A DNA stretch of 64,000 bases from Phycisphaeraceae bacterium (GTDB lineage Bacteria > Planctomycetota > Phycisphaerae > Phycisphaerales > UBA1924), in contig JAHBXB010000002.1 of assembly GCA_019636655.1 (NCBI GenBank), forward strand, positions 632,537 through 696,536, read 5' to 3'. Below the pieces are notes generated by a model. That model searched no databases. It was given only the letters and a program-made list of their open reading frames with translations, and was not told the origin of the DNA. Below are positions 4,078 to 53,505 of this stretch, piece by piece (positions within the stretch are counted from its first letter, which is position 1; each line of letters opens with the position of its first letter). The position numbers and the translations under genes are program-made.

Positions 4078-5796
4078 CTACGGACAGCCGAGCGCGAGCA
4101 CCCATGACCGCACCATCAAGGCGATGTCGGCCGGGTCGACGGCGCCATTGCGGTCGGCATCGGCGACCAGCGTTCCGTCGTTGAGGTCCCGGAGCCAGGC
4201 AACGATGAACGCGGCGAGGTCGGCCGGGGTGACCTCGCCGTCCTGGCTCGCGTCGGCACGGGCGAGGAGGCCCGCGGCGATATCGCAGTCATCGGGGATG
4301 CCGTTGCCGTTGCAGTCCCGGGCGGCGCCGGAGGCGATCTCGGAGTCGTCGGGCTGGCCGTTGGCGTTGCAGTCGTCGGGGCCGATGCGGGCGAAGTAGA
4401 CGTCCTGCTCGCCGTTGTAGGTGGCGCAGAACGCAAGAGAGGCGCCGAGCAGGTCGGACTCCATGTCGAAGTAGTCGCCCATCTTGTTCTGATTGGGCCA
4501 GCCGACGTGGGAGTTGAACTCGACACCGAAGGGCCGCTCGGCGGACCATGTGTCGCCGCCGTCGGGGGAACTTCGGTAGCACATCGTGCCGCGGTTCGCG
4601 GTCTGGCTTGCGCGGGTGTCGATCCAGACGACGTCGAGCCGGCCGTCGGGGGCGACGGCGAGCGTCGCCATCCACTGCCAGGCGTTGGGGCCCGGCGGGT
4701 CGGTGTTCACGCGGATGGGGGGCGACCAGGTCTGGCCGTTGTCGGTGGAGCGGGAGAGCATGACATCGAGCGGGTCGACGCCGGGTGGGTCGACATTGGC
4801 GAGTAGGTAGATCCAGCCGCGGCGGAGGCCGTTGGAGTGGTCGATCGCGAGGTTGATCTGGCCAGGGAGGCCGCCGGGGTTGGGGCTCACGGAAAGCACC
4901 GCGTCGCCGCCCATGGGCACTGTGGCTACAAAGGAGAACGCGGGCGCCTGCTGAGCAATGCCGGCGTTGGCCGACCGGGCAACAAAGAAGAGACTGGTGC
5001 GCGAACTGTTGGGGATTCCCGCAACGAGCACCGATCCATCCGGGGCGACAGCGACCTGACCAAAGACGGGGCTCAGGGGAATCGGGGCCAGGTCGGTCCA
5101 GGTGACGCCGTTGTTGAAACATCGGTTGAAGGTGTTGGGGGCGTAGGGGTTCGCGGCAATGTTCCAAGCCTGGTAGATCGCGCCGCGGGCGGGCCCGGTG
5201 GTACGGTCAACGGCCATCCAGGCCTTATCGCCGCCGTAAGCGAGATAAGGGCCGCCGGCCCACGACTGGCCGGCGTTGTTCGACACGAAGATGTCGCAGC
5301 GGTAAGGTCCGCCGCCGGCGTAGAGCAGGTTCCAGAAGAGCACGCCGTCGGCGTTGAACCGCATGACCGGATCGGTCCGGAAGACTCCGGGCTGGATGGT
5401 GCGCGCCCGCCATGTCCGGCCGCCGTCGAGCGAGTGACCCCAGCCGCCCTGGCGGAAGTTGCTGGTGATGGTGTCGAACTGCCGCCATCCAATGACGACG
5501 CGGTTCGGGGCGGTGGGGTCGACGGCGATCGTCGGCTCGTTCGCCGCGTCACCAACCGTGTTCAGGCCAAGAGACGTGACGTTGACCTGGTGGATGCGGA
5601 CCGAGGGACCGGGGCCGCGGAGGCCGTCGGCGATGGCGGGAACAGAGAGGATAAGGGGGCCGGGCTTGCCCGGCGGATCGTCCGCCCGCTCGCGAGCGAT
5701 CTGCTGGGCCATGGCGGGCAGCGCGGCGCCAGCGATGATGATGCCGGCAACACACGGGCGACGACACAGAGCGGTGTTCATTGGTGCATTCATCAT
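4078..5796 (-). CDS. secreted Asp-box (sialidase-like) propeller protein with dockerin-like C-terminus
   Basis: A 572-residue secreted protein. At least four Asp-box motifs of the S-x-DGG-x-TW type (SLDGGRTW, SNNAGQSW, STDNGQTW, SPDGGDTW) are spread through the body, the hallmark of BNR/sialidase-type beta-propellers. The C-terminus carries DCNGNGIPDD-type segments and two EF-hand-like repeats with D-x-D/N-x-D calcium loops, the dockerin-like tail common in Phycisphaerae. The start is chosen at a tandem ATG (5796/5793) just before a signal peptide ending near AMAQ. The frame stays open further upstream, but that part overlaps the ABC ATPase gene and looks spurious. Enzymatic sialidase activity is uncertain: no Arg triad could be assigned by eye. 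Substrate unknown. Confidence 0.8.
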   Translation of the reverse strand: MMNAPMNTALCRRPCVAGIIIAGAALPAMAQQIARERADDPPGKPGPLILSVPAIADGLRGPGPSVRIHQVNVTSLGLNTVGDAANEPTIAVDPTAPNRVVIGWRQFDTITSNFRQGGWGHSLDGGRTWRARTIQPGVFRTDPVMRFNADGVLFWNLLYAGGGPYRCDIFVSNNAGQSWAGGPYLAYGGDKAWMAVDRTTGPARGAIYQAWNIAANPYAPNTFNRCFNNGVTWTDLAPIPLSPVFGQVAVAPDGSVLVAGIPNSSRTSLFFVARSANAGIAQQAPAFSFVATVPMGGDAVLSVSPNPGGLPGQINLAIDHSNGLRRGWIYLLANVDPPGVDPLDVMLSRSTDNGQTWSPPIRVNTDPPGPNAWQWMATLAVAPDGRLDVVWIDTRASQTANRGTMCYRSSPDGGDTWSAERPFGVEFNSHVGWPNQNKMGDYFDMESDLLGASLAFCATYNGEQDVYFARIGPDDCNANGQPDDSEIASGAARDCNGNGIPDDCDIAAGLLARADASQDGEVTPADLAAFIVAWLRDLNDGTLVADADRNGAVDPADIALMVRSWVLALGCP

Positions 5797-5887
5797 GCCA
5801 TCGCCCGACTGGCTATGCAAACTCATGTTGTATTGTTGCTCGCGGGTCATGCCCGGCGGGCACCCGCCCGGCGAGGCCTGGGCGTCC

Positions 5888-6742
5888 CTACCACTGGCCG
5901 TCGCGAGCGTGCAGGACCGGCATCGCCTGGAGGTACTCGCGTGCCGCCTTGGAATCGGCCTCCAGGAACTGCTCGTAGGGCCCGTCAAAGCAGACGGTGC
6001 CGCCGTCGAGCATGACGACCCGGGGCGCGAGCCGGCGGAGCAGGTCGCGGTCGTGGGTGACGATGATGGAGGTGCGCCGGTCGGCGCCGTCGGGGGCGGG
6101 GTTCTCCACCTTGCGGTGGTGGAAGTTCCAGATCAACTCGTGGATGTGGCCACCGATGATGGGGTCGAGACCGGTGGTGGGTTCGTCGTAGAAGACCACG
6201 ACCGGGTCGATGGCGATGGCACGGGCGATCGCGACCCGCTTGGCCATGCCGCCGGAGAGTTCCTCACGCGACTTGTTCATCACGTCCTCGGGGTCGAGGG
6301 CCGCGGCAGAGATGGCCTCGACCGCCCGCGAGCGGATCGTCTCTTCGGAGAGTTCGGTGTGCTCGCGGAGCCAGAGCGCGATGTTGTCGTAGACCGAGCC
6401 GGAGAAGAGGGCGTTCTTCTGGAAGACCACGGACCAGTGGAGGCGGATGGCGTCCATCGTGTCGGCATCGGCTTCGGCGATGTTGACCATCCGGCCGTCG
6501 GGCTGGTCGTGGTCGGTGACCTCGACGGTGCCGCTGGAGGCCAGGAGCAGGCCGTTGAGGTGGTCCAGGAGGACGGTCTTGCCGCCGCCGGAGGCGCCGA
6601 CGATCGCGATGATCTCGCCGGAGCGGATCTCGAAACTGATGCCCCGGAGGACCTCGTGGTCGTTGAAACTCTTGTGGAGCTTCTGCACCCGGATCTCCAC
6701 TGGTAAAATGGCCTGCCCGGGCGCTGGCTCGGCGTTGCTCAT
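5888..6742 (-). CDS. ABC transporter ATP-binding protein, MlaF-like
   Basis: A 284-residue ATPase with Walker A GASGGGKT, signature LSGGMAKR, and Walker B VVFYDEPTTGLDP followed by an H-loop in VTHDRD. The SGGM-A-(K/R)-R-V-A-(I/L)-ARA pattern and the overall sequence match the MlaF family, which powers phospholipid transport between inner and outer membranes. No MlaE permease or MCE-domain MlaD gene is adjacent in this window, so the partners must lie elsewhere. It is transcribed divergently from the cysteine desulfurase gene with 23 bases between the starts. A TATTCT box 5 bases before the ATG suggests a leaderless transcript. Confidence 0.85.
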   Translation of the reverse strand: MSNAEPAPGQAILPVEIRVQKLHKSFNDHEVLRGISFEIRSGEIIAIVGASGGGKTVLLDHLNGLLLASSGTVEVTDHDQPDGRMVNIAEADADTMDAIRLHWSVVFQKNALFSGSVYDNIALWLREHTELSEETIRSRAVEAISAAALDPEDVMNKSREELSGGMAKRVAIARAIAIDPVVVFYDEPTTGLDPIIGGHIHELIWNFHHRKVENPAPDGADRRTSIIVTHDRDLLRRLAPRVVMLDGGTVCFDGPYEQFLEADSKAAREYLQAMPVLHARDGQW

Positions 6743-8080: not shown

Positions 8081-9310
8081 TCAGCCGCGAGCGGCCTTGT
8101 CGTTGCGGGCGAGATCGGTCCCATAGATCCGCACAACGGGGATGCGCCTGGGGGTCAACCACGCGTGGGCACGATCGAAGATCGCCTGCTCGAACGCGTC
8201 CGAAGAAATAACGACGGCGTCGACGTCGTCCAGGGGAAGCGCCTGGGGCCTGTAGACCGGCACGCCCCGGAGAGTCGAGACCTTGGGAGTGTCATCGATG
8301 ACGGCGACCACGCGAACATTGCAGGAGTTCCATGGCTGGCAGATGATCGGCTCGGTGTGCCGCCCGGCGCCGTAGAGAGCTATTCGGCGCCACCCAGAGG
8401 CGGCGCATCGCTCGGCGACTGACTCGATGAGCCGTCGGCGGATCTGCTCGGCACGTGCAGCCAGATCGCCGTGGTGGGCACGCAACGATCCGAGTTCCGC
8501 CATGGCCCGCTCCAGCGCCGAGGGAGGGGCGGGCGGCGCGGCGCTGGGGGCGGCGACCGTCTCCAGCCGTTGCGGCCGCGTCGCCTCGACGACCAATGCG
8601 ATCGATGGAATCCACGCGCGGCCGGTTTCGCCGCCATCGTGCTTGTCGATGCCTCGCAGCTCCGCATGGCGGCTCTCGCCGAACCTTGCACGCACCACGG
8701 AGTCAAACCCGGCCAGCCGCAGCGACTGCCCGATCGTCTCGAAGTCGTACACAAACTTGTGTCCATCGAGCCACATGCCGTGGTTGAGGACCATGGCGCG
8801 GGTCAGTTTCTCCCCAGGCTGGAACGCGTACCGCGTGTCTAGCCAGCGGAGACGGTGGGCGTCGATCACCTCATCGGGAGCAGGGTTCAGCTGCCGGAGG
8901 TAGATCCGGGCCTCGGCCTCGAGGTCGGGGGTGACGACGCGGACGACGCCGCCGGGACGGAGAATGCGAGCCCACTGGCGCAGGATCTCGTGCCCTTGCT
9001 GGAGCGTGAAGTGCTCGAAGACGTGCTCCGAGTACACGCACGAGGCGCATCGGTCGGGGAGCGCCGCGAGGGCTTCGAAGATGTCCAGAGCGACAACCGG
9101 TTCCTTTGCAGAGTCAACAGCCGGCGCGACGTACCACTCGCCGTCGCCGTTATCAATGTTGGTCCAGCCGGCGAGCGGGAACGTGCCGCACCCGAAGTTG
9201 AGCTTGTCGAGGCTGGAAGCGAGGAGCCTGGCGGTCTCTCGCTCGACACGGGCCGCGGATGTCGCGGGTGCCTGCAGTGCTGTGACGGTGGTGGCCATAG
9301 TGTCCTGCAT
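8081..9310 (-). CDS. SAM-dependent methyltransferase fused to a GAGxHT Rossmann-like domain
   Basis: A 409-residue two-domain protein. Residues ~25-250 form a class I methyltransferase: LNFGCGTFPLAGW is the SAM-binding motif, and YSEHVFEHF and LRPGGVVRVVTPD follow in the usual order. After an Ala/Pro linker, residues ~320-405 form a Rossmann-like domain (ALYGAGRHTEP ... VIDDTP ... VVISSDAFE). The same C-terminal domain recurs in two neighbouring glycosyltransferases. The ATG at 9310 is chosen; a GTG at 9334 that overlaps the upstream stop codon as GTGA is an equally reasonable, translationally coupled start. The context indicates modification of a cell-surface glycan. Substrate unknown. Confidence 0.75.
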   Translation of the reverse strand: MQDTMATTVTALQAPATSAARVERETARLLASSLDKLNFGCGTFPLAGWTNIDNGDGEWYVAPAVDSAKEPVVALDIFEALAALPDRCASCVYSEHVFEHFTLQQGHEILRQWARILRPGGVVRVVTPDLEAEARIYLRQLNPAPDEVIDAHRLRWLDTRYAFQPGEKLTRAMVLNHGMWLDGHKFVYDFETIGQSLRLAGFDSVVRARFGESRHAELRGIDKHDGGETGRAWIPSIALVVEATRPQRLETVAAPSAAPPAPPSALERAMAELGSLRAHHGDLAARAEQIRRRLIESVAERCAASGWRRIALYGAGRHTEPIICQPWNSCNVRVVAVIDDTPKVSTLRGVPVYRPQALPLDDVDAVVISSDAFEQAIFDRAHAWLTPRRIPVVRIYGTDLARNDKAARG

Positions 9311-9330
9311 GTTGCGGATCTGACGGGTGC

Positions 9331-10440
9331 TCACGCCGCGCGTGTCTCGCACGGGGCCGCTTCGGACGGCTGGTTTTCCGCGGCGACGCCGAAGGTCCAG
9401 ATCTCGGGGCTCGGCAGCCACGGCCCCACACCGCGGACCTGGTCCGCGAGGGTGCGAAGTTCCCGCTGCGCCCCGGCCTCGCCGCGAACAGACGGCCTCG
9501 GGTCCGAAGCGGGCGGTGCGAGTGCGCTCAAGGTGGAGAGCGGCCGCGCCTCCCGTATGAACGCCGCGAACTCCCGGAACACCGCCGGGTTCGAGCGGGC
9601 GAAGGCGATCGCGCTCTCGAGCTGTTCCGACGACCGGCAGACGGGGATCGGCACACCCGAGGCCTCGATCATGCCTTCGATCTTCCACGTGTTGCTCGGA
9701 AGAGCAACGAAGGGAATTCCGGCGCGGCCGGCGAGGCAGACGCCGTGGTGCCGCGCGGTGACCAGCAGTTCCGCCCGGGCGATGTTCGCCAGGGCCGACC
9801 GCCAGGTCGCATGGTGCGATCCGTGCGCAAACGGGTAGTAGAAGCTCTTCGACGCCGGGAGCGACCTCCAGTATCCCATCATGATTCGGCCGACGTCGTT
9901 GTTGCGCGCCGAGTGCCAGTCGGTGATGACGATCCTGCCGGAGAGATCGATCAGCGGCTGGTCGTCAAAGGACGCCTCGAAGAACGAATCCGGAACGACG
10001 CGGCAGCGGATGCCGCGAGACTTCATGTAGTCGGCTGATCGGACATCACGGAGGCACAGGTCCTCGACGGCGCTCAGAACCCCGTCGAAGCCCGGCACGT
10101 CCTCGAGCACGCCGTTGATGATGAGGGTGCGCTTTCCGAGCCGCTGGGCCGCGCCGAGGATGGCGAGCCATTGGAGGCCGAGGCCGTGGTGCACCGAGCC
10201 CTCCGCGTTCAGCACGACCGCGTCGCACGCCTCGATGTCGGCGACGACTTCGGGGTCGGAGAGCGCGGCATCGATCGCGGCGGCCTCATTCGGCCGCGAC
10301 AGGTGCGCGTGCGTAGCGACGAAGCGCCGGCGCACCACCTCGTGGCCCATCGCTCCGAGCATCCGGGCGTGGGCGTCGCCGACGGCCAGGCACCCGATGT
10401 GCGGGTAGATCGCGGTTTCGTTCAGGAGCACGATTCGCAT
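9331..10440 (-). CDS. polysaccharide pyruvyl transferase family protein
   Basis: A 369-residue GT-B-like protein. Landmarks include an N-terminal nucleotide-fold start (MRIVLLNET), the NAEGSVHHG segment equivalent to the family's G-E-G/N-x-x-H region, and the C-terminal TARHHGVCLAGRAGIPFVAL segment with the conserved R-x-H-G and downstream Lys. The family transfers pyruvate from PEP onto sugars, or acts as an unusual transferase in glycan assembly. The last ~90 residues are Ala/Pro-rich and not family-typical. The gene ends where a possible GTG start of the methyltransferase gene begins (GTGA), so the two are probably cotranscribed. Confidence 0.8.
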   Translation of the reverse strand: MRIVLLNETAIYPHIGCLAVGDAHARMLGAMGHEVVRRRFVATHAHLSRPNEAAAIDAALSDPEVVADIEACDAVVLNAEGSVHHGLGLQWLAILGAAQRLGKRTLIINGVLEDVPGFDGVLSAVEDLCLRDVRSADYMKSRGIRCRVVPDSFFEASFDDQPLIDLSGRIVITDWHSARNNDVGRIMMGYWRSLPASKSFYYPFAHGSHHATWRSALANIARAELLVTARHHGVCLAGRAGIPFVALPSNTWKIEGMIEASGVPIPVCRSSEQLESAIAFARSNPAVFREFAAFIREARPLSTLSALAPPASDPRPSVRGEAGAQRELRTLADQVRGVGPWLPSPEIWTFGVAAENQPSEAAPCETRAA

Positions 10441-10547
10441 GTGACGGGAAACCTCGGGCGACGGACTCAACGGCAACGCACGCGGGGAGGATCGGCATTT
10501 GCCCGAAAGAGGGGTGAGAAAGCCCGCGACTCGGCCGGGCGCCCGGC

Positions 10548-13445
10548 TCAGACCGCGGCGACGGGCTCCTCGTACGCCGCGTAGACCGGCAGCACACGGA
10601 CGCCGCGGTCCATCAGCGGCCGGCAGCGCTCCCACATCTGGCTCTCGAAGGCGTCGGAGGAAAGCAGCACCGCATCGGGCCTGAGTTCGTCGATGGCTCT
10701 CTCGGGGGTCAGCACCGGGAGTCCGAACATGTACTCCCACACCGGGGGGTGATCGTCCATGATCCCGACGATGGGGAGGCCGCGGACGAAGAGCCCGGCA
10801 ACCCGGCGGGTGTGCTTGCCCGCCCCGAAGACCACGATCCGGCCACACCCTTCCTGCTGCGCCCGGCGCGCGATCGCTTCCATTCGGCCGACGATGCGCG
10901 AGGCGCGGTGCCGGTCGGCGTCGCTCCAGTCCGGCGCCGTCAGCGACGGGGAGAAGACGACTGCAAGGCCGGCGTCCGCCCAGCCGCGGGACCGGGCGAG
11001 GATGTCGGCGTCGCGTGCCGCCTCCTCGGAGTCGATGATCACGGCATCGGAGGAGAGCGACGGCGAGCCGTGGGCGATGCGGGCGTAGCCGTTCTCGCGC
11101 AGGACCGCCTCGATGCGGCGGACCGCCGCCTGCGGCTCCTCCGCCCAGCGCTTGAACCAGCGCCATGTCTCCCTGAGATGGAGCCCCAGGGCCGACCGGG
11201 TGTTCTCCGCGGGGTGCGCGAGGGCCGAATCGAAGACCCGCCGGTACTGCCTCGCCATCGCCTGAAGGGAGGCATCGGCACGCGCCTTCTCCCACGCCGC
11301 GCGGGACATGGACGCCAGGCGGGCACGATCGGATGCGAGATCCGCCAGCCGCTGCGCCATCAGGCCCGGCTCGCCGACCGGGACGACGACGCCCGAAACG
11401 CCGTCGCGGACCCAGTCGTCCACGCCGCTGTTCACCGCGGTGACAGAGGGAACAACGCCGGCGCCCATCGCCTCGAGCATCGAGATGCTCGTCCCCTCGA
11501 ACTCGCTGACGAGCACGCTCACATCCATCGTCGGCAGGAACTCGCGGACCCACTCGGCGCTGCGGGCGCCGTGGATCGTCACCGTTCCGGAGCGGAGCGT
11601 CCGCCGCGCGAGCGACTCGCGCCACGCGCCCAGGTTCGGGCCATCACCCACCATGTGGAACTCGAACGGGGCGCGCCGGGACTCAAGGCCGTCGATCAGG
11701 GGCAGCAGGTCGTCGATCCGCTTCTGGGTCTGCACCATGCGGCCCAGGTAGGCCAGGCGCAGCGGGCCGCCCGCGGGAACCGGCCGGGGCTCCGGCGCGA
11801 CGGGAACGCCGTACGTGATCTGCGAGATCTCGCGAGGCTGGGCCGTCCCGCGTGTCGCCCGCTCGATCTCCGCCATCCACCGGGCGCACACACGCGACAC
11901 ACCGACGCCAGCGTCCCACTCCCGGTACGTGGCGATCATGTCGCGGTAGTAGGGCTCGTCGGTGTGCGCGATGGCGACGGTCCGGACCCCGGCGTGCCGG
12001 AGCTGCGCCGCCGCGATGTAGGTCAGGTCCGTGTAGTTGGGGAGGACGATCGAGGCGCCCATCCGCTGGAGCGAGTCGCGGACCGTGTGGATGATCTCGG
12101 TGTGATCCACGTACGGATCGATGAAGCACACTTCCGTGAGATCGTCCCGGTCGAGCGGCATCCTGCCGACCCGCCACGCATCGGGCTGGAGGACGATCAG
12201 CAGGGTTCGGACGTCGTAGCCGAGGTCCTCCTGCGCGAAGGCCCGTGCGAGGCGACCCGACCATGTCCGCACCCCTCCTACCGCCGACTCATCGCATACC
12301 ACGCAGCTGACGACCCTCGGACGCGAGGGCGGATCCAGCCGCGGGGCCGGCTGCATGGGCGAGTCGATGACCACTGTCGTGCGGCCTCCTCGGGGCCGGG
12401 CGATCAGATCGGCGAGCAGATCCGCAAGGGCCTCGGCCGCCGCAGCGCCGCCGCCGGCGGGCTCGTGAAGCTCGACCAGAGCTCCGAGCTGCCGGGCATC
12501 ATCGGCCCGCGTCGGCGAGAGCAGGCGACTGACCAGTTCGTCCGCCGTCGCAAGCCACTGGGTCTGCCCGGCGACGAGCTCGCGCGCGGCGCGGAGGCGT
12601 GCCAGTGTGGCTGGCGGCAGGGACGCCGCCGCGGACCAGTCCGGGCCCTCTTTGGAACCACCGCTCCACGCACACATCGCGGGCTGCCAGAGCGGAGTCG
12701 GGTGGACATGGAGAAGCCCGGTCGGGCATCCCGCGGCCATCGCCTCGACCATCAGCGTTGACGGGGTCGTGATCACCGCCGATGCGGAGGCCAGGGACTC
12801 GCCAAGGGGGAGTGTGTCGGGCGGGACGCCCAGGTCGGAGTCGAGGCCCGCCGTGAGGCGCCAACGGACACCCAGTCCGCGGGCCTCGAGGACCGCGCGC
12901 AACTCCCGCAGCGCCCCGAGCAGGCGGGCCCGCTCCGCCGGGGCAAAGGCGGGCTGGTTGGCGGTGGCAATCAGAACGGTCGGCCTTGAGCCGTCCCGGC
13001 GGCGCCCTTCGGGCAGCGATTGGACCATCCGATCGATCCGCGGCAGGCCTGCCGCAACCGCTTCGTTCCCCAGCGCACTGAGCACCTCCTGGTCGACACG
13101 CCCGGCGCACGCCACGATGTCGACCGGCGCTGGGCGCAAAAAGTGCGCACCAACGCGGGGGTTGACGAAGGTGTTGCGGTACTCGACCAGGCCGTCCATC
13201 AGCAGCACGGTCGTCGCCCCGATGCGGCGGGCCTGGCGGAGCGCCAGCGCGTTCGCCGCGGCGAACGCGTCGGAGATGACCACCACGCGAGTGCTCGGGG
13301 TGAGGGGCACGGGCGGTTGGTCTGGGAGGAGCCGGTCGCAAGCGAGGCTGTGTCGGACGAGGGCCCGCTCGAGCCCCGCGAAGTGGTCGACCACCGTACC
13401 GCACTGCACCAGCATGACCGGGAAGGAGTGGCGAGCATCACTCAT
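10548..13445 (-). CDS. three-domain protein: GT-B-like unit, GT4 glycosyltransferase and GAGxHT domain
   Basis: A 965-residue protein with three parts. Residues ~1-370 look like a GT-B glycosyltransferase (TTPSTLMVEAMAAGCP is a typical C-terminal GT-B nucleotide-sugar segment). Residues ~380-750 are a GT family 4 enzyme (YLGRMVQTQKRIDDL, VSEFEGTSISMLEAMGAG, with the E-x7-E pattern). Residues ~860-960 are the Rossmann-like domain shared with two neighbours (VVFGAGKHTRR ... IMDDHP ... VLLSSDAFE). Two sugar-transfer modules in one chain suggest consecutive steps in building a surface polysaccharide; this is inferred. It is divergent from the GT4 gene at 13499, 53 bases away. Donor and acceptor sugars are unknown. 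Confidence 0.8.
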   Translation of the reverse strand: MSDARHSFPVMLVQCGTVVDHFAGLERALVRHSLACDRLLPDQPPVPLTPSTRVVVISDAFAAANALALRQARRIGATTVLLMDGLVEYRNTFVNPRVGAHFLRPAPVDIVACAGRVDQEVLSALGNEAVAAGLPRIDRMVQSLPEGRRRDGSRPTVLIATANQPAFAPAERARLLGALRELRAVLEARGLGVRWRLTAGLDSDLGVPPDTLPLGESLASASAVITTPSTLMVEAMAAGCPTGLLHVHPTPLWQPAMCAWSGGSKEGPDWSAAASLPPATLARLRAARELVAGQTQWLATADELVSRLLSPTRADDARQLGALVELHEPAGGGAAAAEALADLLADLIARPRGGRTTVVIDSPMQPAPRLDPPSRPRVVSCVVCDESAVGGVRTWSGRLARAFAQEDLGYDVRTLLIVLQPDAWRVGRMPLDRDDLTEVCFIDPYVDHTEIIHTVRDSLQRMGASIVLPNYTDLTYIAAAQLRHAGVRTVAIAHTDEPYYRDMIATYREWDAGVGVSRVCARWMAEIERATRGTAQPREISQITYGVPVAPEPRPVPAGGPLRLAYLGRMVQTQKRIDDLLPLIDGLESRRAPFEFHMVGDGPNLGAWRESLARRTLRSGTVTIHGARSAEWVREFLPTMDVSVLVSEFEGTSISMLEAMGAGVVPSVTAVNSGVDDWVRDGVSGVVVPVGEPGLMAQRLADLASDRARLASMSRAAWEKARADASLQAMARQYRRVFDSALAHPAENTRSALGLHLRETWRWFKRWAEEPQAAVRRIEAVLRENGYARIAHGSPSLSSDAVIIDSEEAARDADILARSRGWADAGLAVVFSPSLTAPDWSDADRHRASRIVGRMEAIARRAQQEGCGRIVVFGAGKHTRRVAGLFVRGLPIVGIMDDHPPVWEYMFGLPVLTPERAIDELRPDAVLLSSDAFESQMWERCRPLMDRGVRVLPVYAAYEEPVAAV

Positions 13446-13498
13446 GGGCGTCTAGATCGGTTGCGGGGCGATCCTGGTCGCGAAATCGAGAGGCCGTC

Positions 13499-15214
13499 AT
13501 GGGGTCGGCGCGTGGGAGTCGATTCCTGCGCACTGTTCGCGTGCGGGGCTCCGGCGGGCCGATTGACACTACCTCATCGATGACCCTGGCACCCACGACA
13601 TCGCCGGCCCCGATCCCGAGCCGGACGCCCGCGCCTGCACCGTCGCGCGCGCCGGTGGTGATCTCGCTGCCGGACGGCGTGTCGGTCTCCGGGGTCACCA
13701 CGTGGGCGCTCAGGCTTGCCGGAGCCCTGGCGACCGCGGGGCGGCAGGTCGTGCTCGCCGCGCACGCGGAGCCCGACGGGATCACCCGGTTGGAGGCCCG
13801 TCTGCCCCGCGGCGTGCACACCGTCCGGCTCGATTCGCTGCCTCCCCTGCGCTCCGCCGGCGGGAACCTGGGGCCGTTCATCGACGCGTACCGGGACGTG
13901 TTCCGCACCGTCTCGGACGCGGTCGGATCGCCGGTGGTGTTCGCCCCATCGCTGCTGGGGGATTGCTACGGGATCGGCGCGGCGATCTGCCTCGTCGAGC
14001 CCGAACTGGTGCGACTACTCGCGGTTCAGCACTCCGACATCGAGTACGACTACCGCGTCCTCGGGCGCTACGAGCCGGTGATCGCCCGGTTCGTCGGCGT
14101 CAGCTCCAGGGTGACGACGACGCTGCGGTCGCGCCTGGCCAAGTCGGGGGCGGCCCGCAGCGCGGACACGATCCATGTGCCCTACGGCGTTCCGGTGTCC
14201 CCCGCGCTCCCCGGCCGCGCCCCGGTGATGATGCGTCCATCGCGCCCGCTGCGGCTGGTGTACACGGGCCGGATGGAGCACGCGCAGAAGCGGGTCGGGG
14301 CCCTGGTCCTGCTGTCGGATGAACTGCACTCGCGCGGCATGCACCATGTGCTCACCCTGATCGGCGATGGCCCCGCCGCGCCGGAGATTGACGCGGCGTG
14401 CGCGGAACGCGCCGGGCGGATGAAGAGGATGGCCGGCGTCAACCCCGACGATGTGCTGCAGCACGTCGCCGCGTCGGACGGGTTCGTGCTGGCGTCGAGG
14501 TACGAGGGGCTGAGCGTGTCGATGCTCGAGGCCATGTCGCGCGGGTGCGTGCCGATCCTGACACGGGTCGCGTCCGGGGCCGCGGAGGCTGTCGTCGACG
14601 GCGAGAGCGGGTTCTTCGCCGACGTGGACGCGGCCGATCCCGACGACCGCGCTGTCGCCCGGGCCCTGGCCGACGCGATCGAACGCTGGCTGGGGTGCGA
14701 TACCGCCGGGGCGGCGCACGCGGCGTGGCAGACCGTCCGCGAGCGGTTCAGTCTCGATCGCCACGCCCAGGTGATGAGCGAAGTGATCGACGATGCGGCC
14801 ACATCGGAGCCGCGACGATGGCCCGCCGACAGGCCGTGCGCCTACTCGGCGATGCCCGGCGGCGAGGGCGCCTCGGGGAGCATCCCCGCGGACGGCGCGG
14901 CCCGGCTTCAATCACTGCTGGGCTCGCTCGCCGGCCGGACGGTGGTGCTGCACGGGGCCGGCGAGCACACGGTCGGGCTCTCGCGGGTTCTCGCCGCGTC
15001 GCCGGCCCGCATCGTCGCGGTGTGCGACGACGACCGGGCGCGGTGGGGAGGATCGCTGCTGGGCTGGCCGGTCATCGACCCGGCCAACGCCGCGGCGACC
15101 GGGGCCACCGACGTCGTGCTCTCCTCCTGGCTCCACTCGGGCGCCCTGTGGGCCCGACGCGGGATCTACGAGCGACAGGGCCTGCGCGTGCACCGCGTCT
15201 ACCCGGCCGATTGA
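13499..15214 (+). CDS. GT4 glycosyltransferase with C-terminal GAGxHT domain
   Basis: A 571-residue glycosyltransferase. The GT4 core spans residues ~50-430 (DGVSVSGVTTWALRLA at the N-lobe, VYTGRMEHAQKR and SRYEGLSVSMLEAMSRG at the C-lobe). Residues ~475-570 repeat the shared Rossmann-like domain (VVLHGAGEHTVGL ... AVCDDD ... VVLSSWLHS). GAGAGG at 13488-13493 supports the ATG at 13499; a second ATG at 13580 would remove a Ser/Thr/Pro/Ala-rich leader. Its last 16 bases overlap the end of the convergent GT2 gene. Likely works on the same glycan as the three genes to its left. Confidence 0.82.
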   Translation: MGSARGSRFLRTVRVRGSGGPIDTTSSMTLAPTTSPAPIPSRTPAPAPSRAPVVISLPDGVSVSGVTTWALRLAGALATAGRQVVLAAHAEPDGITRLEARLPRGVHTVRLDSLPPLRSAGGNLGPFIDAYRDVFRTVSDAVGSPVVFAPSLLGDCYGIGAAICLVEPELVRLLAVQHSDIEYDYRVLGRYEPVIARFVGVSSRVTTTLRSRLAKSGAARSADTIHVPYGVPVSPALPGRAPVMMRPSRPLRLVYTGRMEHAQKRVGALVLLSDELHSRGMHHVLTLIGDGPAAPEIDAACAERAGRMKRMAGVNPDDVLQHVAASDGFVLASRYEGLSVSMLEAMSRGCVPILTRVASGAAEAVVDGESGFFADVDAADPDDRAVARALADAIERWLGCDTAGAAHAAWQTVRERFSLDRHAQVMSEVIDDAATSEPRRWPADRPCAYSAMPGGEGASGSIPADGAARLQSLLGSLAGRTVVLHGAGEHTVGLSRVLAASPARIVAVCDDDRARWGGSLLGWPVIDPANAAATGATDVVLSSWLHSGALWARRGIYERQGLRVHRVYPAD

Positions 15215-16278
15215 GGCCCCCGTCCCGGCTCGGACCCCGAAGCCTCGAGAAAGCCCCGCCGCCACTGCCACCGCTTGAGAAGCAGGTGCTGCTGGTAGAT
15301 CGCATCGATCAGCGTGCGCGCCGCCGGGGAATCTCCCGAGGGCGGGAGCGTCGCCGCGGGCGTGGTCGCGAGCGAGGCGAACGTCTCGCGGACCCGGGCC
15401 GCCGCGCCGGCTTCCCGCTCGACAAACTGGCGGGAGTACTCGACCTCGGCCGGGGCCGTGATGTCACGCCCGAACGTCGCTCGGGCGCAGTCGGGAGACA
15501 TCCGCGCGAACCCCCACGCGGCGAGCCCGAGCGCGTGCTCGCGTGCGAGATACCCCTGCGTGCTCTGGTGGTGGTCGTGCCACACCCGAGCGGCGGGCCG
15601 GAAGAGCACCGGCATGCCGAACCTCGCGTGAAGCCGGAAGGCGATCTCGATGTCCTCGTAGCCGTACTTCTCGGGATAGACGGTGAAGCACCCGGCCTCG
15701 CGCACGCGGTCCAGCGGGTAGGAGACGTTCAGACCAAACGCGTGGCGGAAGCCCCAATCGCGCTCCGGGTCCGACGCCGCATCGACCCCGTGCCGCTCGC
15801 GCCAGGCGTGCGAGCCGGGCATCTGGTCGTGGAAGAAGATCATGGACGTCTCTCGCACCAGGCGGTCGAGGAGCGTGTCGTCCTCGCCTCGCAGCCGCAC
15901 CCACGGCGAATCGCCGACGACCGTCGCGGGTCCGAGCCCCGCGCCCTCCCGCGCCCGGTGCGCCTCGATGTGCAGCCGGCACAGGGGCGGTTCGGCGAGC
16001 ACATCGTCGTTGAGCGACAGCAGGATCCGGCCGCGGGCATGCTCGATTAACCGGTTCCGCACGGCGGTGTAGCCGCAGCGCGGGTACTCGAAGATCGACG
16101 CCCGCAATGCCCCCGAGGCGTTCCGCGCGATCGCCAGGGTTTCGCCGTCATCGGGGCCGTCGATCCCGACCAGGACCTCAAACCGCGCCGAATCCAGGTC
16201 CTGCCGCTGCAGGCACCCGATGCACGCGGCGAGTTTCTGCGGCCGGGCCCGGGTCGGGATGATGACTGAGAGATCCAT
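15199..16278 (-). CDS. glycosyltransferase family 2
   Basis: A 359-residue GT-A enzyme. The start SVIIPTRARPQKL, the LVGIDGPDDG segment, the LLSLNDDVLAEP metal-binding region (DxD-like NDD) and a C-terminal EDIEIAFRL segment (ED motif) are standard for family 2. No transmembrane segment is evident, so it is probably cytoplasmic and uses a soluble nucleotide sugar. It closes the glycan cluster and converges with the GT4 gene, overlapping it by 16 bases. AGGA lies a short distance before the ATG. Confidence 0.88.
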   Translation of the reverse strand: MDLSVIIPTRARPQKLAACIGCLQRQDLDSARFEVLVGIDGPDDGETLAIARNASGALRASIFEYPRCGYTAVRNRLIEHARGRILLSLNDDVLAEPPLCRLHIEAHRAREGAGLGPATVVGDSPWVRLRGEDDTLLDRLVRETSMIFFHDQMPGSHAWRERHGVDAASDPERDWGFRHAFGLNVSYPLDRVREAGCFTVYPEKYGYEDIEIAFRLHARFGMPVLFRPAARVWHDHHQSTQGYLAREHALGLAAWGFARMSPDCARATFGRDITAPAEVEYSRQFVEREAGAAARVRETFASLATTPAATLPPSGDSPAARTLIDAIYQQHLLLKRWQWRRGFLEASGSEPGRGPQSAG

Positions 16279-52363: not shown

Positions 52364-52963
52364 ATGCCGAATGTTGGACCGCGCCCGTCACTCCATGCAC
52401 TTCGACTTCGAGCCTGCATCCTGGCCGTCGCGGCAGTGAGCGCCTGCGGGCTGGCCGGGTGCGTCGAGCGGACGCTGCGCATCACCTCCGATCCGCCGGG
52501 GGCGTTGGTGTGGCTCAACGACGTGCAGGTTGGGAGGACGCCGGTCGAGACGGATTTCACCTATTACGGCTCGTACGACGTGCGGGTCCGGCTTGATGGG
52601 TATGAGCCGCTATCGACGGTGCGGGACGCGAAGATCCCGGCGTACGAGATCCCGCCGATTGATCTTGGGGCGGAGATGGTCCCGACCAAGATCTCGTCAA
52701 CGATCGACTGGCACTTTGTGCTCGAGCCGACGCTGGAATCGCGCGCCGAGAAGTCCGGCAAGGAGGAGGATGCGGCTCGGGCACGGGCGGATCTGATGAT
52801 GCGGGGCCGCAACCTCGCGGCGCAGGCGGGGCTGTCGACCATCGGCGTGCGCCCGGGCATCGACGCTCAGCCGTCCAGCGGCGATGCGGGCACACCGGCC
52901 ACGACGGAACCCTCGTCGACCGAGTGGAGGACGACGGACCCTGCCCCGACGACCCCGCGCTGA
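52364..52963 (+). CDS. PEGA-domain lipoprotein
   Basis: A 199-residue lipoprotein. The signal peptide ends in the lipobox L-A-G-C (Cys ~31). A PEGA repeat follows (ITSDPPGALVWLNDVQVGRTPVET ... YDVRVRLDGYEP), a beta-sandwich motif of surface-layer and lipoprotein proteins. The C-terminal ~75 residues are charged and then Thr/Pro-rich. A GTG at 52355 is an alternative start. Its last 97 bases overlap the convergent acyltransferase gene, an unusually long overlap. Confidence 0.82.
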   Translation: MPNVGPRPSLHALRLRACILAVAAVSACGLAGCVERTLRITSDPPGALVWLNDVQVGRTPVETDFTYYGSYDVRVRLDGYEPLSTVRDAKIPAYEIPPIDLGAEMVPTKISSTIDWHFVLEPTLESRAEKSGKEEDAARARADLMMRGRNLAAQAGLSTIGVRPGIDAQPSSGDAGTPATTEPSSTEWRTTDPAPTTPR

Positions 52964-53505
52964 CCGATCGACAGGTTCGGCAGGACCCTGCACCCCATCC
53001 CGATCAGGGAGTGAGGCCCGACGCGCACGCGGCCGCCGAGGATGGCCCCGGGCGCGATGTGCGTGTTGGCGCCGACGTGGCACTCGTGCTCGATGATGGC
53101 GCCGGTATTAATGATCGCATGGTCGCCGACCACCGCCCGCGTGTGGACGACGGCTCCGGGTCCGACAAACACCCCGGCGCCCAGGCGGGCGGTCGGGGAG
53201 ACGACGGCATCCGGGTGCACCACCGCCGCGGCGGGGGGCAGACCGGGCAGGAGGCCGGCCGCGGAGATGAGGCGTTCGCGGAGGGAGAGGTCGCCGACGC
53301 CGATGATCCAGGCCCGCGGGCCGATGAGGTCGAAGCGGTCCATGGCGCCCAGGCGGGCGGCGTGGGGCTCGCCCTGGGAGAGGGCGGATGCGGGCGAATC
53401 GTCGAGGAAGCCGGCGAGCGTCAACCCGGCACGCAGCGCGGCCTCGGCGACGACCAGCGCATGGCCCCCACCACCGATCAGGATGAGGTCGCCCCGGTGC
53501 GGCAC
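52867..53505 (-). CDS. NeuD/PglD-like sugar O/N-acyltransferase
   Basis: A 212-residue protein with an N-terminal Rossmann-like domain (LILIGGGGHALVVAEAA) and a C-terminal left-handed beta-helix of hexapeptide repeats (VVSPTARLGAGVFVGPGAVVHTRAVVG ... GCRVLPNLSIGQRGVVGAGSVV). The NTGAIIEHECHVG segment with the catalytic His and the D-H-A-I-I-N pattern are those of the NeuD/PglD family, which acetylate amino- or nonulosonic sugars. GTG start at 53505 with a TAGGCT box 6 bases upstream. It fits the surface-glycan theme; the sugar is unknown. Confidence 0.88.
   Translation of the reverse strand: MPHRGDLILIGGGGHALVVAEAALRAGLTLAGFLDDSPASALSQGEPHAARLGAMDRFDLIGPRAWIIGVGDLSLRERLISAAGLLPGLPPAAAVVHPDAVVSPTARLGAGVFVGPGAVVHTRAVVGDHAIINTGAIIEHECHVGANTHIAPGAILGGRVRVGPHSLIGMGCRVLPNLSIGQRGVVGAGSVVLHSVDEGSVVAGVPASPLDG

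What the first reader, a model, noticed from the sequence alone, without database searches (positions are those of the whole stretch)
8081..15214. One C-terminal GAGxHT Rossmann-like domain shared by three different glycan enzymes
A methyltransferase (8081-9310), a double glycosyltransferase (10548-13445) and a GT4 (13499-15214) end in homologous ~90-residue domains: hydrophobic strand, GAG(R/K/E)HT, then V-x-D-D, a G-x-P-V segment and a V-(I/L)-(I/L)-S-S motif. The same domain attached to unrelated catalytic modules in neighbouring genes suggests a shared ligand or docking function, for example binding a nucleotide-linked intermediate or holding a multienzyme complex together. It resembles PglD-N or C-methyltransferase C-terminal folds, but the GAGxHT motif is not one I recognise as described.
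Basis: partly seen in the sequence, partly recalled or inferred. Interest (0 to 1): 0.72.

Follow-up and report, generated by a model that had tools for sequence, protein, structure and literature searches.

The report
Shared nucleotide-binding-like tail on glycan enzymes
Several sugar-chain-building enzymes in a planctomycete gene cluster share one small add-on domain that looks like a known nucleotide-binding fold, which suggests that one small-molecule signal or handle may coordinate the pathway.

Summary
Tails of the methyltransferase (MT), the double GT and the GT4 align over about 90 residues, with 0 of 2000 shuffles reaching any pair's score, and are the only three strong copies in the 3.66-Mb genome. 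One correction: the GT and GT4 are not unrelated; their GT4-type parts are homologous (31.7% over 401 aa).

The domain showed no Pfam or NCBIfam model of its own. By profile it is a distant relative of PglD_N, Methyltransf_14 and CoA_binding_3 (WbaP DUF) (96-98% probability; reversed control under 0.3%). Its model (pLDDT 89.6) best fits the C-terminal domain of sugar C-3'-methyltransferases (Z 10.6). The invariant residues (G-x-G-x-H, DD) align with the UDP site of PglD-type enzymes.

Relatives sit on GT-A, GT-B, several methyltransferase types, a sulfotransferase, a GDSL-like, a deacetylase and B12-radical-SAM proteins, often several per cluster, in three phyla. The pocket is as conserved on non-GT as on GT carriers, so a donor-sugar role cannot be general.

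Most likely (about 0.4) it is a nucleotide-sensing accessory module, as published for the WbaP DUF. A shared substrate handle or docking remain rivals. No ligand was tested.

The parts
8081..9310 (-). Methyltransferase (Methyltransf_11/23-like) with the tail at its C-terminus; 409 aa
   Evidence: ORF; Pfam Methyltransf_11 E 4e-6; no blastp match to residues 1-270 at E up to 1e-5 among ORFs of 54 fetched loci
8096..8443 (-). Tail domain of the MT; GAGRHT 8354-8371, DD within 8291-8299, SS within 8189-8209, Y within 8120-8131
   Evidence: preceded by a predicted 40-residue helix, protein residues 265-304
9331..10440 (-). Polysaccharide pyruvyl transferase family gene between the tail genes; no tail
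   Evidence: Pfam PS_pyruv_trans E 1.4e-10, the only family listed; start codon
10548..13445 (-). Double glycosyltransferase: N-terminal half without a Pfam match + GT4-type half + tail; 965 aa
   Evidence: Pfam Glyco_trans_1_4 E 2e-21 at residues 563-706; N-terminal half has relatives in other genomes
10554..10898 (-). Tail domain of the double GT; GAGKHT 10809-10826, DD within 10752-10760, SS within 10644-10664
   Evidence: AlphaFold2 model pLDDT 89.6, pTM 0.83
13446..13498 (.). 53-bp gap between the divergent start codons of the double GT and the GT4
   Evidence: a divergent GT/GT4 tail pair also in L076, L077, L078 and L081 (coordinates, classes)
13499..15214 (+). GT4 glycosyltransferase with the tail at its C-terminus; 571 aa
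   Evidence: Pfam Glyco_trans_1_4 E 5e-18
14882..15211 (+). Tail domain of the GT4; GAGEHT 14954-14971, DD within 15023-15031, SS within 15119-15139 (here the E of SSxxxE is S)
   Evidence: falls in a clade of 21 GT4 tails, support 98/97
15199..16278 (-). GT2 glycosyltransferase next to the cluster, overlapping the GT4 end by 16 bp; no tail
   Evidence: Pfam Glycos_transf_2 E 2.5e-10

Best explanation
The tail is a Rossmann-like nucleotide-binding accessory module, an apparently unnamed subfamily of the superfamily that holds PglD_N, the C-terminal domain of sugar C-methyltransferases and the CoA_binding_3 domain (the DUF of WbaP). I think it most likely works like the WbaP DUF: it binds a free uridine nucleotide at the edge formed by GAGxHT, DD and SS, and so tunes the enzyme it is fused to. 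The same module on several enzymes of one glycan cluster would let glycosylation and tailoring (methylation, sulfation, deacylation) answer together to one nucleotide level; tail-to-tail pairing may be part of it. Shown: homology, predicted fold, conservation of the pocket edge, spread and clustering. Inferred: the ligand, its uridine identity, and the regulatory effect.
For: Profile-profile matches: CoA_binding_3 97.6% (E 2.7e-12), Methyltransf_14 96.7% (3.4e-10), PglD_N 96.1% (3.2e-9); the reversed profile gives 0.06-0.29%. Profile search of solved structures: 3nkl E 2.8e-7, perosamine N-acetyltransferase E 2e-4. Model pLDDT 89.6; best structural fits are the C-terminal domains of KijD1, MtmC and TcaB9, Z 9.4-10.6, from residue 1 to 108-115 of the model; 3nkl 8.7, WbaP 8.2, PglD-type 7.5-8.1. 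The eight most conserved positions all lie within six residues after a strand, and 10 of the top 12 (such positions are 29 of 92). The second G and both D are in 64 of 64 tails. In Pcryo_0637, Asp40 contacts ribose and Asp41 uracil, kept in PglD as Asp35/36 (passages of PMC8040287); the tail's DD and H align with that motif. WbaP DUF: UMP, UDP and UTP stabilise it, UMP inhibits the enzyme with an IC50 of 4.1 uM, and the authors assign nucleotide sensing and dimer contacts (passages of PMC10942596). Pocket residues are as conserved on 18 non-GT tails as on 61 GT tails, as a signal common to the pathway predicts.
Against: No ligand or regulatory effect was tested. DD is not strict in the wider family: 7 of 13 matches in the second phylum (read by eye) and 0 of 3 in Azospirillum (DR). 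Ser11/Ser13 of the UDP site is Gly in 64 of 64 tails. UDP-Gal destabilised the isolated WbaP DUF. The closest structural fit is to a substrate-binding domain, not a sensor, and succinyl-CoA synthetase (CoA-binding) chains and an uncharacterised protein (2g6t) score nearly as high (Z 9.2-9.8). The profile search also rings for designed proteins at E 0.001-0.007. In the edge test 12 of 91 circular shifts did as well on the mean, so the result rests on the top-ranked positions. A nucleotide sensor on a sulfotransferase, GDSL-like protein or B12-radical-SAM enzyme would be unusual.
Confidence: 0.4

Rival explanations
1. Substrate-handle binding: the tail holds the nucleotide (or other pyrophosphate) end of a common intermediate while the catalytic module works at the far end, as the homologous domain does in PglD-type enzymes and, as I understand it, in sugar C-3'-methyltransferases.
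For: The best structural match, over the whole tail, is the C-terminal domain of KijD1/TcaB9/MtmC; several of these entries are TDP, dTMP or dTDP-sugar complexes by title (which residues bind them was not seen in any call). In PglD-type enzymes the homologous domain binds UDP of the sugar being modified. Carriers include modifying enzymes as well as GTs, and the pocket is conserved on both.
Against: GTs, sulfotransferases and deacetylases usually act on lipid- or polymer-linked chains, not nucleotide-linked ones (established knowledge). The MT tail follows a Pro/Ala-rich stretch and a 40-residue predicted helix, which does not suggest the tight packing of a C-methyltransferase; the inter-domain arrangement could not be modelled.
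Confidence: 0.22
2. Docking: tails pair with each other and hold the enzymes of one cluster in a complex; the pocket is structural or ligand-gated.
For: Tail genes cluster: all three in the window lie in 7.1 kb; in 25 genomes with more than one match, 49 of 70 matches have another within 20 kb; three consecutive genes in an Azospirillum plasmid. The homologous DUF mediates dimer contacts in WbaP, and structural models place the regulator EpsW in a complex with EpsZ in which the DUFs pair.
Against: The most conserved positions are the ligand edge of the fold; no surface patch was looked for. Glycan genes cluster anyway. No interaction was tested.
Confidence: 0.2
3. Ordinary hitchhiking: an ancestral GT4+tail fusion was duplicated, and the tail is a stabilising appendage with no shared function.
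For: GT and GT4 in the window are homologous; tails mostly follow their catalytic class: 21 GT4 tails and 8 GT2 tails each form one clade; with the unassigned rows left out, 19 label changes for 15 classes, minimum 14.
Against: Five changes beyond that minimum, and about seven unrelated catalytic folds among the carriers. Near-invariant pocket residues across carriers.
Confidence: 0.13

Closest known systems
C-terminal domain of sugar C-3'-methyltransferases (Pfam PF08484 Methyltransf_14; KijD1, TcaB9, MtmC)
   Same: Same fold over the whole tail, including the helix before the first strand (Z 9.4-10.6); profile match 96.7%; 18 of 64 tails give a weak Pfam match at E up to 1; fused to an MT in the window.
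   Different: Mostly DR/DK where the tail has DD: 1 of 16 rows is DD; no GAGxHT in the rows seen; known as part of one enzyme type (recalled), not shared among many.
CoA_binding_3 (PF13727), the DUF of WbaP-type phosphoglycosyl transferases
   Same: Highest profile-profile score (97.6%, E 2.7e-12); a non-catalytic module on a glycan enzyme; published nucleotide-sensing and dimer role.
   Different: No PGT catalytic domain in the three window proteins; no GAGxHT in the 14 rows printed; DD in 9 of 19 rows.
PglD_N (PF17836), the UDP-sugar-binding domain of PglD/NeuD-type acetyltransferases
   Same: G-x-G-x-H and DD align; 42 of 64 tails give a Pfam match at E up to 1.
   Different: Window tails score 13.6-14.9 bits against a cut-off of 23.4; nothing follows the tail; it has SSxxxE where PglD_N has a G and later R.

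Membership tests
PglD_N (PF17836) | Score over the Pfam gathering cut-off (23.4 bits) | tested here: not met
   14.9, 14.3 and 13.6 bits for the three window tails; relatives L048:13356-14447 (26.7) and L217:1877-3529 (29.3) are over it
PglD_N (PF17836) | G-x-G/S-x-H loop and uridine-contacting D-D | tested here: met
   residue roles from PMC8040287 passages
PglD_N (PF17836) | Followed by an acetyltransferase beta-helix | tested here: not met
   No such family in the Pfam scans of the three proteins; the tail ends each protein
Methyltransf_14 (PF08484) | Score over the Pfam cut-off (23.5 bits) | tested here: not met
   No match listed at E up to 1 for the three window tails; best among 64 relatives E 5.5e-5
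Methyltransf_14 (PF08484) | Fold of the C-terminal domain of KijD1/TcaB9 | tested here: met
   Z 10.6, rmsd 2.9, 106 residues, on a predicted model
Methyltransf_14 (PF08484) | Binds the nucleotide end of the sugar substrate | not testable with these tools
   no ligand assay
CoA_binding_3 / WbaP DUF (PF13727) | Score over the Pfam cut-off | tested here: not met
   No match listed for the three window tails at E up to 1; 2 of 64 relatives match, best E 0.11
CoA_binding_3 / WbaP DUF (PF13727) | Profile-level homology | tested here: met
   97.6%, E 2.7e-12; reversed control 0.29%
CoA_binding_3 / WbaP DUF (PF13727) | Fused to a phosphoglycosyl transferase domain | tested here: not met
   Pfam scans of the three window proteins
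CoA_binding_3 / WbaP DUF (PF13727) | Binds UMP/UDP/UTP and regulates the fused enzyme | not testable with these tools
   published for WbaP, not for this domain

The most novel reading that the evidence does not exclude
The tail is a cluster-wide address label: glycan clusters in several phyla build and decorate a chain on a common nucleotide- or pyrophosphate-linked handle, and many enzymes of the cluster, whatever their chemistry (GT-A, GT-B, methyl, sulfo, acyl, B12-radical SAM), grip that handle with the same domain. This would be assembly-line recognition by a shared binding domain, comparable in logic to carrier-protein recognition in polyketide synthesis.
Probability: 0.18. Interest if true: 0.82.

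Novelty: new variant of a known kind. Interest (0 to 1): 0.57.

Why it matters
Accessory domains of glycan enzymes are common, but one module repeated across chemically unrelated enzymes of the same cluster points to a pathway-level signal or handle. If it senses uridine nucleotides, the WbaP type of control would extend from the first enzyme of a pathway to many later ones. If it holds a shared intermediate, it would reveal an unknown carrier logic. It also gives a simple sequence tag (GxGxHT ... DD ... SSxxHE) for finding enzymes that may work on the same glycan, including unannotated families.

Tried and rejected
Rejected: chance motif similarity (0 of 2000 shuffles for each pair; reversed-profile control; 0 matches in reversed ORFs of the Azospirillum locus). 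Rejected as a general role: binding of the NDP-sugar donor, because 18 of 18 non-GT tails keep the second G, H, T/S, both D, S, S/A/T, E and Y, and 17 of 18 the first G. That count used 79 of 89 tails (7 unassigned and 3 of unknown class left out); class labels rest on Pfam and blastp and, for the labels 'GTA_novel' and 'GT77like', on my reading of the sequence. Two of the four 'GT77like' proteins also match Methyltransf_24 but were counted as GT. Rejected: 'three unrelated catalytic modules' within the window.

Led nowhere: the full-length MT model has a poor catalytic part (mean pLDDT 58.5, pTM 0.42), so domain packing against KijD1 could not be judged. One search of phage records and one pattern scan of viral contigs (18 stretches, no relative) gave nothing. 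Paper searches aimed at PglD and TcaB9/KijD1 gave 0 papers, unrelated listings plus one natural-product review or one methyltransferase review that I did not open. A first regex count of the residue pair at the DD site was unreliable for the comparison families and was replaced by a count of alignment columns. The neighbour survey (80 of 144 candidate ORFs, chosen to stay under the size limit, plus the pyruvyl transferase) showed mostly GTs, sulfotransferases and methyltransferases among the top families, and PfkB and cytidylyltransferase domains in two members each; only 25 of 63 families are listed.

Rows dropped: from the 75 domains, 11 were left out of A2 (degenerate, distant or truncated), so the 64-of-64 counts hold for a set chosen as clear members. 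L080, L081, L086 and L087 were dropped from the tree as copies of contigs already held as L048, L043, L040 and L063. The tree has few columns and its bootstrap had not settled. In one search two matches of one split domain and a few tandem copies within one protein were counted as separate matches. In one search only about 11 candidates per genome were scored, so its counts may be low.
Full report
What is there. The three ORFs and their tails are at the stated coordinates. The tails are homologous over the whole ~90-residue domain: pairwise 30-34% identity, z-scores 8, 13 and 20 against 2000 shuffles, none of which reached the real score. A profile of the three finds three matches at E up to 1e-3 in the window's 3.66-Mb, 98%-complete genome, these three, all within 7.1 kb (two weak extra matches, E 0.12 and 0.15, with one tail as query). 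Between them lies a pyruvyl transferase gene without a tail and next to them a GT2 without one. The double GT and the GT4 are read divergently from a 53-bp gap, an arrangement also seen in L076, L077, L078 and L081 (coordinates, classes). One part of the finding needs correcting: the GT4-type part of the double GT and the GT4 are homologous (31.7% over 401 aa, E 4e-21), so within the window only the MT is an independent carrier.

Relatives. In 61 genomes (the window's own and 60 relatives), 36 have a match at E up to 1e-3, 81 matches in all. In 392 genomes drawn across the phylum, 77 match at E up to 1e-6; of the 13 with a best E under 1e-12, 9 are in the window's family, 1 in its order and 3 elsewhere in the phylum. 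A named-genome scan gave 12 loci, 11 titled Phycisphaerales, Phycisphaeraceae, Phycisphaerae or Planctomycetota and one titled Deltaproteobacteria (Myxococcota by NCBI ranks). The group treated as the phylum of that last genome has matches at E up to 1e-12 in 6 of 7 genomes. An Azospirillum oryzae plasmid carries three consecutive genes with the domain, one of them a B12-binding radical SAM protein. So the tail is abundant in one planctomycete family and present in at least two other phyla.

Carriers. Per-protein Pfam scans and a tally over 69 ORFs place the domain on GT-B enzymes (Glycos_transf_1 in 28 of 69), GT2 (10 of 69), FkbM, Methyltransf_11 and Methyltransf_24/TylF methyltransferases, a sulfotransferase (L058:6589-7911), a GDSL-like protein (L054:10709-11809, below the family cut-off), a capsule-synthesis/methyltransferase/polysaccharide-deacetylase protein (L082:4980-8315), GT9-GT2 fusions (L209, L210) and B12-radical-SAM proteins (L206, L212, L217). 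Nine further proteins share an N-terminal part that matches no Pfam family at E up to 1e-3. The domain is C-terminal, N-terminal, internal or tandem. In 25 genomes with more than one match, 49 of 70 matches have another within 20 kb.

History. A tree of 89 tails (few columns, bootstrap not settled) shows that tails mostly follow their catalytic class: 21 GT4 tails form one clade (98/97), 8 GT2 tails another (100/99). The 16 labels, 'unassigned' included, need 24 changes, minimum 15; without the unassigned rows 19, minimum 14. So tails have moved between modules more than once, but not freely. The window's MT tail groups (100/81) with tails at the N-terminus of three other methyltransferases, and is 56% identical to a tail fused to a TylF-type enzyme; no relative of the MT's own catalytic part was found in 54 fetched loci.

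What fold it is. The three window tails reach no Pfam cut-off; PglD_N is the best match (E 0.04-0.1). Among 64 relatives, 42 match PglD_N and 18 Methyltransf_14 at E up to 1; in NCBIfam 42 match the NeuD family at E up to 1, far below its cut-off in the one member shown. Profile-profile comparison gives 96-98% probability for PglD_N, Methyltransf_14 and CoA_binding_3, against under 0.3% for the reversed profile. An AlphaFold2 model of the GT tail (pLDDT 89.6, pTM 0.83) fits best the C-terminal domain of sugar C-3'-methyltransferases (Z up to 10.6), then, among the candidate families, 3nkl (8.7), WbaP (8.2) and PglD-type enzymes (7.5-8.1), while succinyl-CoA synthetase chains reach 9.2-9.8. Foldseek alone gives three matches at E up to 0.001: 3nkl, 2g6t and KijD1.

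The pocket. The eight most conserved positions all lie just after strands, at the edge where Rossmann-like domains bind nucleotides (permutation p 0.005 for the mean, but 12 of 91 circular shifts do as well). The motif has H in 60 of 64 and T in 57 of 64; both D in 64 of 64; the late Y in 62 of 64. In the PglD-type enzyme Pcryo_0637 the matching Asp pair holds ribose and uracil, and the loop residue matching the tail's H is Cys13, His15 in PglD (passages of PMC8040287; alignment, residue matching by me). The DD pair is present in 23 of 24 PglD_N rows, 9 of 19 CoA_binding_3, 1 of 16 Methyltransf_14 and 1 of 12 partial Methyltransf_14 rows; perosamine N-acetyltransferase (a GDP-sugar enzyme by the title) has DA, VioB DN and PglB DD at this place. 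That VioB uses dTDP and PglB UDP I recall; no call showed it. DD therefore hints at uridine, weakly: in the second phylum 7 of 13 matches have DD (by eye) and the Azospirillum tails have DR.

How it may work. The closest relative with a published accessory role is the WbaP DUF: UMP, UDP and UTP stabilise it, UDP-Gal destabilises it, UMP inhibits WbaP with an IC50 of 4.1 uM, and its authors assign it nucleotide sensing and dimer contacts (passages of PMC10942596). In EpsZ the same DUF takes part in a modelled complex with a regulator (passages of PMC12802240). The tail's pocket is kept as strictly on 18 non-GT tails as on 61 GT tails, so the ligand is not simply the donor sugar; it should be common to the pathway. 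That favours a nucleotide sensor (0.4) over a grip on a shared nucleotide- or pyrophosphate-linked intermediate (0.22), docking (0.2) or no function of its own (0.13). None of the functional steps was tested.

Novelty. A full-text search for 'GAGxHT' found 0 papers. Two searches for the domain combination gave one listing and 8 listed of 700, none of whose titles or shown abstracts describes it; these papers were not opened, and the library is partial. No dedicated Pfam or NCBIfam model appeared in the listed matches. I file it as a new variant of a known kind: a new subfamily and a new use (one module shared through a cluster) of a known nucleotide-binding domain superfamily.

Noticed in passing
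window 52867-53505 (-): NeuD/PglD-type gene with a true PglD_N domain (E 1.1e-9, over cut-off), the only such match at E up to 1e-8 in this genome; it lies about 38 kb from the tail cluster.
   Followed up: partly
L217/L218, Azospirillum oryzae plasmid NZ_CP054615.1, record 237708-244307: Three consecutive genes (two hypothetical, one B12-binding radical SAM) each carry a related GAGxH-type tail with DR instead of DD, beside carbamoyltransferase, ketoacyl-ACP synthase and methyltransferase genes.
   Followed up: partly
G000:C1:328736-331667 (own genome, loci L146, L163, L167): Three neighbouring matches to Methyltransf_14, one over the full family length and two over its C-terminal part only: perhaps a parallel case of a related domain repeated within a cluster.
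   Followed up: no
L044:10104-11246, L053:9383-10735, L053:10497-12017, L054:9455-10705, L057:9333-10541, L059:4395-5594, L059:7151-9412, L064:7730-9043, L044:8647-10626: Nine tail-bearing proteins share an N-terminal module of very roughly 250 residues with no Pfam family at E up to 1e-3 (apart from a sub-cut-off PglD_N match to the tail of one); by eye it looks like a GT-A-type glycosyltransferase.
   Followed up: partly
window about 8399-8518 (-), MT residues 265-304: A 40-residue helix predicted directly before the tail, at high confidence in most of its length, a possible stalk or coiled coil.
   Followed up: no
window 4078-5988 (-): Protein with BNR/Asp-box repeats (below family cut-offs) upstream of the cluster.
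   Followed up: no
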